From: Georgenia faecalis
GTDB lineage: Bacteria; Actinomycetota; Actinomycetes; Actinomycetales; Actinomycetaceae
Direction of reading: 5' to 3'
NCBI RefSeq assembly: GCF_003710105.1
Contig: NZ_CP033325.1
Coordinates: 1,922,001 to 1,986,000 of the forward strand
Length of the DNA stretch: 64,000 nt
Program-made: the position numbers and the translations under genes
The notes under the pieces: generated by a model
What the model was told of the DNA's origin: nothing
Databases searched by the model: none
Seen by the model: the letters and a program-made list of their open reading frames with translations, nothing else
In this document: positions 24,341-27,474 of the stretch, piece after piece
Numbering within the stretch: position 1 is the first letter of the stretch
Layout of the letters: each line of letters starts with the position of its first letter

Positions 24341-24991
24341 CTAGCCGGTGAATCGGAGCTCGAGGCTCGGGTCGAGCGTCACTAAAGCGGGCTCGCCGTT
24401 GTAGTCCTCGAATAAGAGCCACCCGAACTCCTCATCCAGACCCCTGAACGCCGTCAACCATGTGCCCGACTGACCTTGCATGAGACCGGTGGTGCAGTTC
24501 TGGCCCGAGATATACCCAGGTTGATCGACCATTAGCATCTCGCGTCCCTGCAGATCAAAGGCGCGGAGGTCCATCGAGTACGGCCCGTGACATTCCTTCT
24601 CGACCGCCTCTGCGAGGTTGTTTGTCCAGGTGATATCGACATACCAGAGCCGCTCGCCCTCACCCGCAGTAAAGGGTTCCTGATAGTCCGCGGCGATAGA
24701 GTCGCGGCGTTCGAGCACATTCACGACGATGTCGGCGGACGGGCGCCTAATCAGTTCGCCCACAGGGTAGACCTCTGGAACGTCCGCCTCAGGCGTAGGC
24801 GGGGCTGGTGGTGCGGCGGGCCGGGACGGCGGCGACGACGGGGTGCTACGCGGCGCAGTCGACGCCGCGTCCCCTTCAGGCGACTCCGACACGAGCGGTT
24901 CCGTGGGGCGAGCGTTGGTCGCGTCTTCAGCGGTACACGCGCCCAGGGCAAGTGCAGCGGCCAGGGACAAACACGCAACGCCACGTTTCAA
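24341..24991 (-). CDS. Predicted lipoprotein with C-terminal beta-rich domain
   Basis: A 216-residue secreted lipoprotein. The start is TTG at 24991, preceded by GAGGAG with 6-nt spacing; it yields a lipoprotein signal (KR, hydrophobic stretch, LGAC with Cys19). Residues 25-75 are a Ser/Thr/Pro/Ala linker. The rest (about 85-216) looks like a single beta-sandwich related to DUF4352-type domains: VVNVLERRDSI, YVDITWTNNLAEAVE and ELRFTG at the end, with two cysteines (in ECHGPY and GQNCTTG) that may pair. Base composition and codon choice are more AT-rich than in the housekeeping genes, a sign of acquisition. Function unknown. Confidence 0.72.
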   Translation of the reverse strand: MKRGVACLSLAAALALGACTAEDATNARPTEPLVSESPEGDAASTAPRSTPSSPPSRPAAPPAPPTPEADVPEVYPVGELIRRPSADIVVNVLERRDSIAADYQEPFTAGEGERLWYVDITWTNNLAEAVEKECHGPYSMDLRAFDLQGREMLMVDQPGYISGQNCTTGLMQGQSGTWLTAFRGLDEEFGWLLFEDYNGEPALVTLDPSLELRFTG

Positions 24992-25933
24992 AATGCTCTC
25001 CTCGTGTGCTCCTACGCCGTCTGGGAGACGACCCAAACGGCGCCGACGTTGTTTGACCCTTGGGGCTCGAGCGGACATCCACCGGCCAGCAGCCAGCACG
25101 GTCACTCGCACACCACCCTGGCGCGCGGACGACGCTACCTGGTGCCTGGACTGTTGGGACCGTTCCCGCGAGACGTTCTTTTCCGGACACGACGCCCCTG
25201 CGTAAGAGTTCGACACAACAGGCGAGAGCTCGCCACTGCCCCGCGCGTGGGGCGGGGGCGTGGGGCGTGGGGCGTGGGGCGTGGGATCAGCGCAGATGAC
25301 GACCCACCACTGCGTCTACTAAACGCGTGGGGCAACGCGCCTGCGGTACTCGGGTTCCACTCGGCGGTTCGCGCATGCCAGGGTCTTCCGCTTCCAACGG
25401 CCCTCGCCGCTCACCACGGCCGCGCCGCCCCGGCGGCGACACAGGGCGGCGCACTGGGGGCGCCCGTCCGCGATGCCGTTCTGGTAGTCGGTTCCCCCGG
25501 CTCAAGGGGTGGCTGCCGCCTGGACGGTGGCCTGACGAGCGTCACGACGGCGTGCCACTACCAGTCCTCTGGTGTTGAGAAAGTCTCCAGCAACGACCGG
25601 CGGCGAAGTGAGTGGGAATGTCTGATCTGGGCGTCCGCTCCAGGCTTCTCGAACTGTCCGTTGCGGATCGCGTTGCCGTCGCCGAGCAGGGTGTCTTGGC
25701 TGGCGCTGATCGACTGAGCTCCTTGAGGATCTCCCCTTGAGTCTCTCAAGCTGTGCCGACATGAGTTCGGTGCCTCCTCGGGAGGTGGCGGAAGCGTCGA
25801 CGCTATCGCTGCACACCAAGCCTTGGCCGAGTGGCCATCTACGTCCCACCGCCGGTCGTCTCCGCGGAGCGGAAGCGACCCCTGGCTTAGCGCGGGCGTA
25901 CGAGCGTCGTTCTCAACGTTCATCCCCGCGGTA
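24992..25933. other. Gene-free stretch inside the atypical islet
   Basis: Over 900 bases with no reading frame that has the codon pattern of a gene on either strand. Apart from a heptanucleotide repeat (25245-25285) and probably the promoter of the lipoprotein gene at the left end, I see nothing recognisable. It may be decayed coding DNA. Confidence 0.6.
25245..25285. repeat. Tandem GCGTGGG heptanucleotide repeat
   Basis: Four exact copies of GCGTGGG in a row (25258-25285), preceded by one exact copy and a shortened copy (25245-25257). Non-coding here. A slippage-prone simple repeat; its complement is C-rich. Confidence 0.85.
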
Positions 25934-26641
25934 TCACCACTTGCTGTATGGCTCGAGGTGCGGGGTGAACGGTACATCGGGCGGCTCTACGGCCCAACCA
26001 TGATTCCTCAGGACGTCTGCCGCTTCTCGTTGCAGGTCCCGGACTGCGGTACGGAACTGTCTCATCCGCCATCGTTGACGGCCACGTTCAAGAGCAGCTT
26101 CCCACCCGTCAACTGCATCGATGCCGCAGTCGCGGATAAGCACCTCCAGGAGATCCTCAAGACAGGGCCGGAATCGCTCGCCGCCCACCGGCAGATGCAC
26201 ACTCGACAGGTCGTGTGGCTTGCGGACCCGCCTCTGATCCGCGGCGTTTGCGATCGACAGGAGGTGAGAGAACGCCCCACGCTCGGCGTGGAACTGCCAA
26301 TGGCAGACCGGGTCGGAGTGCATGTCGGCGCGGTACTCAAGTCGGATCAACGGGGTTCGGTCAAGTGTCGAGTACACCTTGAAGTCGGAACGCGTGGTCT
26401 TGAGGTAGTTACCCGAGTGATCGAGAGTCTGGTACATCGCGACTGATAGGTCTGCCAGGTGGGTGCCAGCGACGGCCAGGGGAATCTTCTGTGCCTCAGC
26501 ATCCGCACCATCGGGGCGGACGGCGTACCGCTCGCCGTACCGCACCGAGACCATCGCTACTTCTCGGCCAAGAGCGTCCGCGAGAAGTTGCGCCACCTCG
26601 CCCGCAAACTCAAGGGAGCGTCCGGCGAGATCAGAAGTCAT
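25934..26641 (-). CDS. Unknown 235-residue protein, second gene of a toxin-antitoxin-like pair
   Basis: A soluble protein of 235 residues. Conserved-looking features are LIRLEYRADMHSDPVCHWQFH (about 97-117), HAERGAFSHLLS with HDLSSVHLPVGGERFRPCLED (about 145-165), rich in His, Cys and Arg, and a basic helix near the end (GRQRWRMRQFRTAVRDL). I recognise it only as an uncharacterised actinobacterial type, without a known catalytic site. Its ATG overlaps the end of the upstream 65-residue gene by 11 nt, so the two are translated together. Codon usage is less GC-rich than the flanks. A small acidic-tailed partner ahead of a larger protein in an islet suggests antitoxin then toxin, but this is inference. 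Confidence 0.65.
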   Translation of the reverse strand: MTSDLAGRSLEFAGEVAQLLADALGREVAMVSVRYGERYAVRPDGADAEAQKIPLAVAGTHLADLSVAMYQTLDHSGNYLKTTRSDFKVYSTLDRTPLIRLEYRADMHSDPVCHWQFHAERGAFSHLLSIANAADQRRVRKPHDLSSVHLPVGGERFRPCLEDLLEVLIRDCGIDAVDGWEAALERGRQRWRMRQFRTAVRDLQREAADVLRNHGWAVEPPDVPFTPHLEPYSKW

Positions 26642-26828
26642 CGGCAGAGTCGTCGAGGAGAAAGCTGATCTCCTCGAGCTCAGATACTGCGTCCCACTCG
26701 TCGCCGGTCAGCGAGCCGCGCAACACCCTACGACGGAACTCGTCAAGGGACACACCCAGCTGCGCGAGCACGTGCTCACGACGTGCGACCAGTTCGTCCC
26801 GGCTCACTTCGATCGTCCGAGGTGCCAT
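26631..26828 (-). CDS. Small putative regulator/antitoxin, first gene of the pair
   Basis: A 65-residue protein starting at ATG 26828 after AGGAAGG; an in-frame ATG at 26864 lies upstream of the predicted transcription start and is less likely. It begins RTIEVSRDELVARREHVLAQLG, a strand then helix, continues SLDEFRRRVLRGSLTGDEW and ends in a very acidic tail (LLDDSADDF). Small proteins of the pattern SLxELRxRAxxxxLT are known in actinobacteria without assigned function. Size, acidity and coupling to the next gene fit an antitoxin. Confidence 0.6.
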   Translation of the reverse strand: MAPRTIEVSRDELVARREHVLAQLGVSLDEFRRRVLRGSLTGDEWDAVSELEEISFLLDDSADDF

Positions 26829-26867
26829 GATCGTGACCCTTCCTGTCCTCTTGCTCTTGCCCATGAT

Positions 26868-27042: not shown

Positions 27043-27474
27043 GACCAATCAGGGGTCCGCAGCGGCCTCCCGTTCATCGACCAACAGGCGGCGCACCGGC
27101 GCGCGCCGAGCTGGCGGGAACGGTCAGGTGGCGGAGTCGCGTCCGGCCTCGAGCACTACCCCTTCGACGAGGACGCCGCCTGGCAGCCGAGCGACGTGCG
27201 CTCGACGACGGCATACGACGCCGCCGTGGGGCTCGTCACCGTGCTGGAGGCGGCGGCCGTGCCGCCCGGGACGGTGCACGAGCGCTACGACAACCTCGTG
27301 GTGCGTCTGACCTCGGCCGACCCCGGGCTCGTCGTCCCGGACCTCGTCCCGAACCCCTACGACTTCACGTTCCCCGAGCGACGCGGCAAGCGACCGGCCG
27401 GCACCGGGCACGCGAAAGGCCCGCGCCGTCCGGGGGACGACGCGGGCCTCACGGACGCGGATCAGTCGAGGTAG
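27043..27474 (+). pseudogene. Remnant of a protein-coding gene, 5' end missing
   Basis: From about 27043 the + strand is open without a plausible start and, from about 27130 onward, has the high G/C third positions of a real gene: SGLEHYPFDEDAAWQPSDV, then YDAAVGLVTVLEAA and DLVPNPYDFTF. The frame then runs through the sigA terminator hairpin and into the sigA 3' end, so its natural end may also be lost. A GTG at 27196 could start a short product, but no SD is seen. It lies at the islet edge, so it may have been truncated when the islet arrived. Family not recognised. Confidence 0.4.
27417..27449 (-). terminator. Terminator of sigA
   Basis: A 15-bp inverted repeat with one mismatch and a 3-nt loop, ending on the minus strand in CCTTTCG, 13 nt after the sigA stop codon. 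It has the form of an intrinsic terminator with a short U-tract. Confidence 0.75.

What the first reader, a model, noticed from the sequence alone, without database searches (positions are those of the whole stretch)
25934..26864. Candidate new toxin-antitoxin-like or defence cassette
A 65-residue protein (strand-helix start, acidic tail) overlaps by 11 nt a 235-residue His/Cys/Arg-rich protein with the unusual block HDLSSVHLPVGGERFRPCLED. They share one promoter in an islet of odd composition. Neither matches a family I can name. The order small-then-large with coupling is the common antitoxin-toxin arrangement.
Basis: inference. Interest (0 to 1): 0.65.

Follow-up and report, generated by a model that had tools for sequence, protein, structure and literature searches.

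The report
Unnamed mobile toxin-antitoxin-like gene pair
A small and a larger gene that always travel together through actinobacteria, their plasmids and their prophages look like a not yet described toxin-antitoxin pair, distantly resembling the TumA-TumE system, although nobody has yet tested whether the larger protein is toxic.

Summary
On the minus strand a 65-aa gene (26828-26631) overlaps by 11 nt a 235-aa gene (26641-25934), in the lowest-GC stretch of the window (62% against 74%). Neither protein matches Pfam, NCBIfam, PADLOC or PHROGs at a meaningful score. The pair recurs: 62 loci with an intact large gene were collected from actinobacterial chromosomes, plasmids and (pro)phages. In 61 the small gene lies directly upstream on the same strand, often overlapping; the exception is cut by a contig end. 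Several loci keep the small gene beside a broken large one. Two M. abscessus prophages and one viral contig carry the pair between lysis genes and the integrase; other copies lie beside restriction-modification genes or a type I-E cas operon. By profile comparison the small protein resembles TumA, the antitoxin of TumA-TumE (score 23; 200 shuffles reached at most 13). Two confident AlphaFold models of the large protein show a helix, seven strands, then helices, matching the published description of TumE's elements; no PDB structure matches. The direct large-TumE sequence link is not significant, and the conserved residues differ. Best reading: a new type II toxin-antitoxin family, possibly a distant TumA-TumE variant. 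Toxicity and defence are untested.

The parts
26631..26828 (-). small gene, 65 aa, putative antitoxin (TumA-like); a longer ATG at 26864 would give 77 aa
   Evidence: SD-like AGGAAGGG upstream of ATG 26828; homologous small ORF upstream of 61 of 62 intact large genes; profile similarity to TumA
25934..26641 (-). large gene, 235 aa, putative toxin; N-terminal helix, seven strands, C-terminal helices
   Evidence: (pLDDT 87, pTM 0.86); no Pfam/NCBIfam/PADLOC/PHROGs match
26631..26641 (-). 11-nt overlap of the two reading frames (probable translational coupling)
   Evidence: similar spacing in homologues
26153..26197 (-). codons of the most conserved block, H149-x-P-x-G-G-x-R-x-R-P-x-x-E-D163, candidate active site
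   Evidence: H149, P151, G153, G154, R156, R158 in 62/62 and P159, E162, D163 in 61/62 aligned homologues
26288..26302 (-). codons of H114-x-x-x-H118; H114 is in 61/62 homologues, H118 is lost in the divergent clade
27130..27474 (+). C-terminal gene fragment next to the cassette and rpoD, absent beside rpoD in 14 family relatives; may mark the edge of an insertion

Best explanation
This is a two-gene type II toxin-antitoxin-like module carried horizontally among Actinomycetota. Shown: a 60-70 aa helical protein and a 220-250 aa protein are encoded together, small first, in 61 of 62 loci, on chromosomes, plasmids and prophages; they co-vary as a unit and are under purifying selection. Inferred: the small protein is the antitoxin, made first and in excess through coupled translation, and binds the large protein. 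The large protein is the toxin, a helix-plus-seven-strand domain with a conserved His/Arg/Glu/Asp cluster (H114, H149, R156, R158, E162, D163, R188), which by analogy with TumE would stop translation, possibly as an RNase (itself unproven for TumE). The unit may stabilise its mobile element and/or act as an abortive-infection or superinfection-exclusion module in lysogens.
For: Co-occurrence and order: 61 of 62 intact large genes. Decay asymmetry: large gene broken while small is intact at L016, L031, L056, L112, L114, L116 and probably L032, plus orphan small genes. Mobile context: M. abscessus prophages, between integrase and lysis genes; the same place in viral contig L063 (assignments by eye); plasmids of Curtobacterium, Streptomyces and Rhodococcus, one copy beside type I-E cas genes and one beside integrases; neighbours of 20 chromosomal loci matched 186 PADLOC model families against 15 in matched controls, mostly restriction-modification (families, not proteins, are counted). 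Foreign GC. Small vs TumA: hhalign score 23.3-24.5, P about 2-3e-4, probability 39-45%; 200 column shuffles at most 13.3; cross-comparisons 7.5-11.6. TumA-TumE pairs L124 and L125 show the same small-first layout with the same 11-nt overlap. Fold: helix + seven strands + helices in two models from clades about 26% identical; TumE is described as two helices packed on a seven-stranded antiparallel sheet without PDB matches (PMC10584680), and ours has none either. TumE is experimentally toxic, neutralised by TumA, and inhibits translation.
Against: No toxicity data exist. The large vs TumE sequence comparison is not significant (score 18.4; 5 of 300 shuffles as high), and the Pfam TumE model finds nothing in the genomes searched that carry this pair. 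The conserved residues differ: TumE has RxD...H...HHxH, here HxPxGGxRxRPxxED. The small-TumA match is moderate (probability below 50%) and covers only about 40 residues. TumE and the large protein could not be superposed, so the fold match is by element order only. At 220-250 aa the protein is larger than TumE (about 120 aa). In G144 the large gene is intact while the small one is split across contig ends.
Confidence: 0.6

Rival explanations
1. The pair is mainly a phage-defence or superinfection-exclusion module: the large protein is an effector triggered by an infecting phage and the small one is its sensor or regulator, rather than an addictive toxin-antitoxin pair.
For: Position between integrase and lysis genes in prophages; pairs in viral contigs near HTH and antirepressor-like genes by eye; one copy beside type I-E cas genes; neighbours rich in restriction-modification models; patchy distribution, 34 of 396 genomes of the order.
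Against: No PADLOC model matches either protein. Toxin-antitoxin pairs also sit in such places, so location does not separate the two. The small protein resembles an antitoxin rather than a sensor.
Confidence: 0.25
2. The large protein is a true remote member of the TumE superfamily, enlarged by an insertion between the last strand and the C-terminal helix (residues about 119-148) and a C-terminal helical extension.
For: Same element order (PMC10584680); same gene order and overlap; small protein TumA-like; the low-threshold profile path runs collinearly, with RLEYRAD against RYDST and RPCLEDLLE against KPEIIQVLK.
Against: Profile-profile score within the upper tail of shuffles; no Pfam TumE hit; TumE's HHxH and fully conserved R are not kept.
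Confidence: 0.4
3. An ordinary regulatory or metabolic gene pair: the large protein is a housekeeping-type enzyme and the small one its partner or regulator, with no toxicity.
For: The strongly conserved HxPxGGxRxRPxxED block looks like an enzyme active site. No toxicity test exists.
Against: Patchy presence, plasmid and prophage carriage, foreign GC, frequent decay of the large gene alone, and no consistent third gene in the viral and plasmid loci compared.
Confidence: 0.2

Closest known systems
TumA-TumE (DUF6516, PF20126) translation-targeting type II toxin-antitoxin (Durairaj et al. 2023, PMC10584680)
   Same: Small upstream gene with the same 11-nt overlap in the annotated pairs; antitoxin profile similarity; helix plus seven-strand element order; no PDB match; carriage on plasmids.
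   Different: Large protein twice as long, not matched by the Pfam TumE model, different conserved residues (HxPxGGxRxRPxxED rather than RxD...HHxH); toxicity unknown; found here in Actinomycetota, mostly genomes without PF20126.
att-linked toxin-antitoxin and defence cassettes of mycobacterial prophages (PMC8092301)
   Same: Located beside the integrase at a prophage end, on the integrase strand, opposite to the lytic genes.
   Different: The passages of that paper read here do not name this pair; its genes 77/78 in prophi102-2 and prophiGD54-1 are annotated only as hypothetical.
Polymorphic toxin-immunity cassettes of M. abscessus prophages (PMC8092301)
   Same: Placed near an attachment junction and carried as prophage cargo.
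   Different: Those have about 50-kDa WXG-100 toxins and an immunity gene downstream; here the small gene is upstream, the large protein about 26 kDa, and no WXG-100 gene lies between the integrase and lysis genes in the annotation.

Membership tests
Type II toxin-antitoxin system | Two adjacent co-oriented genes that co-occur across genomes | tested here: met
   61 of 62 intact loci
Type II toxin-antitoxin system | Toxin inhibits growth and the antitoxin protein neutralises it | not testable with these tools
   needs an expression assay
Type II toxin-antitoxin system | The two proteins form a complex | not testable with these tools
Type II toxin-antitoxin system | Carried on mobile elements, patchy distribution | tested here: met
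TumE (PF20126) | Match to the Pfam TumE model | tested here: not met
   and no match in genomes carrying the pair
TumE (PF20126) | Conserved R-x-D ... H ... HHxH residues | tested here: not met
   only an R/H-x-E/D pair and two conserved His in similar order
TumE (PF20126) | Two helices packed on a seven-stranded antiparallel sheet | tested here: inconclusive
   helix, seven strands, helices in two models, but strand order and packing not compared
TumE (PF20126) | Inhibits translation | not testable with these tools
   shown for A. tepidum TumE only (PMC10584680)
TumA antitoxin | Profile similarity of the small protein | tested here: inconclusive
   score 23.3-24.5, P 2-3e-4, probability 39-45%, far above shuffles and cross-comparisons, but not at family-assignment level
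Known anti-phage defence systems (PADLOC v2) | Match of either protein to a model | tested here: not met
Ubiquitin-conjugating E2-like fold (considered from HxPxGG...RPCLEDVLE) | Structural match to solved E2 proteins | tested here: not met
   no E2 match worth following among those listed and none of any kind at E <= 0.001 in PDB searches of two models

The most novel reading that the evidence does not exclude
A widespread, unnamed actinobacterial toxin family with a fold not in the PDB and an HxPxGGxRxRPxxED active site, paired with a TumA-like antitoxin and used by prophages and plasmids as an anti-phage module; its chemistry would be new rather than TumE's.
Probability: 0.3. Interest if true: 0.75.

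Novelty: new variant of a known kind. Interest (0 to 1): 0.5.

Why it matters
The pair is in roughly 6-9% of sampled genomes of its order and class, on plasmids, and in prophages of Mycobacterium abscessus, yet no general family library covers it and its fold has no solved relative. If it is a toxin-antitoxin or abortive-infection system, it adds a target or chemistry to that class, extends the recently found TumA-TumE idea in Actinomycetota, and gives an immediate candidate for explaining how such prophages affect superinfection. Useful natural controls (broken copies, orphan antitoxins, two diverged clades) already exist.

Tried and rejected
Pfam, NCBIfam, PADLOC and PHROGs scans gave no meaningful hit. 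The weak small-protein hits DUF6400 and CsrA (E 0.04-0.08) are below cut-offs. PDB sequence searches with both profiles found nothing significant. Foldseek of two models against PDB and of one against viral proteins found no match at E <= 0.001; the best viral hit, a salmon isavirus p32 fragment (E 3.5e-3, TM 0.27), was rejected for low TM-score and 8.5 A rmsd. An E2-like (HPN...C) fold was considered and rejected. Small genes coupled to ABC transporters (L110, L111, L113, L115) were judged unrelated from weak E-values. A TumE search in viral contigs found none. No sigma-70-like promoter was found, which says little for an actinobacterium.

Full report
What is there. On the minus strand, a 65-codon gene (ATG at 26828, stop at 26631) with an AGGAAGGG motif about 9 nt upstream overlaps by 11 nt a 235-codon gene (26641-25934). 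The stretch 25934-26864 has 62.4% GC; no other sampled 931-bp stretch of the 64-kb window is lower (mean 73.7%). GC3 is 0.70 for the large and 0.73 for the small gene against 0.96 for rpoD next door. Beside it lies a gene fragment (27130-27474, plus strand) that is not found next to rpoD in 14 relatives of the family. This fits recent horizontal arrival.

Not in the libraries. Neither protein reaches a meaningful score in Pfam, NCBIfam, PADLOC or PHROGs, nor do 24 homologues of the large protein or 13 divergent small proteins in Pfam. Named records in plasmids and phages call them hypothetical.

A conserved two-gene unit. Homologues of the large protein are in 34 of 396 genomes of the order, 25 of 395 of the class with a profile, and 5 of 149 of the phylum; these figures include the window's own genome. 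They are also on five plasmids, in two M. abscessus prophages, and in 12 viral contigs. After removing duplicates, 62 loci hold an intact large gene, and 61 have the small gene directly upstream on the same strand, from overlapping by about 20 nt to several tens of nt apart. The one exception, in genome G144, starts at a contig edge, and the rest of its small gene appears to be at the end of another contig. Distances among small and among large proteins correlate (Mantel r 0.70, 2000 permutations at most 0.17, 45 loci), and dN is well below dS. The 62 loci are not all independent in descent.

Decay is lopsided. At L016, L031, L056, L112, L114 and L116, and probably L032, the large gene is frameshifted, truncated or internally deleted while the small gene is open. 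Orphan small genes exist, one in the same genome at G000:C1:3398540. A toxin may be lost freely but an antitoxin may not, so this is the expected direction, though the numbers are small.

Where it sits. In prophi102-2 and prophiGD54-1 of M. abscessus the pair (genes 78 and 77) lies between the tyrosine integrase and the holin/lysin genes, on the integrase strand. In viral contig L063 it again lies between lysis-type genes and a tyrosine integrase, and in L070 and L073 near HTH and antirepressor-like genes; these assignments were made by eye. On a Streptomyces albus plasmid it is next to a type I-E cas operon, on a Rhodococcus megaplasmid next to integrases and transposases, and on a Curtobacterium plasmid a few kb from a ParA gene. 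The 133 nearest genes at 20 chromosomal loci matched 186 PADLOC families, against 15 for 135 genes taken 22-100 kb away in the same genomes. The output counts families, and a few restriction-modification proteins match many, so this shows a tendency rather than a measured enrichment. No third gene recurs with the pair in all of the viral and plasmid loci compared.

Structure. Two AlphaFold models were made: the window protein (pLDDT 87, pTM 0.86) and a divergent clade member about 26% identical (pLDDT 92, pTM 0.89). Both show an N-terminal helix, seven strands, then helices. Foldseek found no PDB match at E <= 0.1 for either. Conservation over 62 sequences is concentrated in H114 and in H149-x-P-x-G-G-x-R-x-R-P-x-x-E-D163, followed by R188, Q195 and R201. 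This looks like a catalytic or RNA-binding site; that is inference.

Link to TumA-TumE. TumE (DUF6516, PF20126) is a toxin shown to stop growth and translation in E. coli and to be neutralised by the upstream TumA. Its fold is described as two helices on a seven-stranded antiparallel sheet with no PDB match (PMC10584680), and no TumE structure was found in the PDB by sequence. Annotated TumA-TumE pairs on Nostoc plasmids have the same order and the same 11-nt overlap. The small protein matches TumA with hhalign score 23.3-24.5 (P 2-3e-4, probability 39-45%); 200 column shuffles reached at most 13.3, the reversed profile 10.8, and comparisons with unrelated profiles 7.5-11.6. The two clades of small proteins match each other at 96% probability. 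The large protein against TumE scored 18.4, and 5 of 300 shuffles did as well, so this is not significant by itself; it is higher than large against TumA (10.8). The Pfam TumE model finds nothing in the searched genomes that carry this pair, and TumE's HHxH signature is absent. Hence 'works like TumA-TumE' is plausible and 'is TumE' is not established.

How it probably works. Translation of the small gene feeds the large one through the overlap, so antitoxin is made first and in excess (inferred from layout). The antitoxin masks the large protein (inferred). When antitoxin supply fails, after loss of the element or on infection, the large protein acts, most likely on RNA or the translation apparatus (by analogy with TumE only). 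Whether the benefit is maintenance of the element or defence against other phages cannot be decided here.

Verdict. A real, widespread, unannotated mobile gene pair, most likely a new variant of type II toxin-antitoxin system; toxicity, target and role need experiments.

Noticed in passing
G000:C1:3398540-3398710 (L105): A second, orphan copy of the small gene in the same genome (E 3e-13) with no recognisable large partner nearby; an orphan antitoxin or a pair with an unknown partner.
   Followed up: partly
window 27130-27474 (+): A C-terminal gene fragment (SGLEHYPFDEDAAWQPSD...) converging on rpoD, with no Pfam match and not found beside rpoD in 14 family relatives.
   Followed up: partly
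window 24341-25216 (-): A 291-aa ORF, by eye lipoprotein-like, of 64% GC, also in the low-GC stretch; no Pfam match; may belong to the same acquired islet.
   Followed up: no
L107 and L006 (genome G144): The small gene appears split between the ends of two contigs (C4 and C21), as if interrupted by a repeated element, while the large gene is intact.
   Followed up: partly
L133 (genome G893): An actinobacterial TumE homologue (PF20126, 38 bits) with a diverged HHIQ motif and a TumA-like ORF upstream; a possible intermediate between TumE and the large protein here.
   Followed up: partly
L110, L111, L113, L115: A small protein of similar pattern (weak E-values) upstream of an ABC-transporter ATPase gene in at least three of four genomes; probably unrelated but recurrent.
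   Followed up: no
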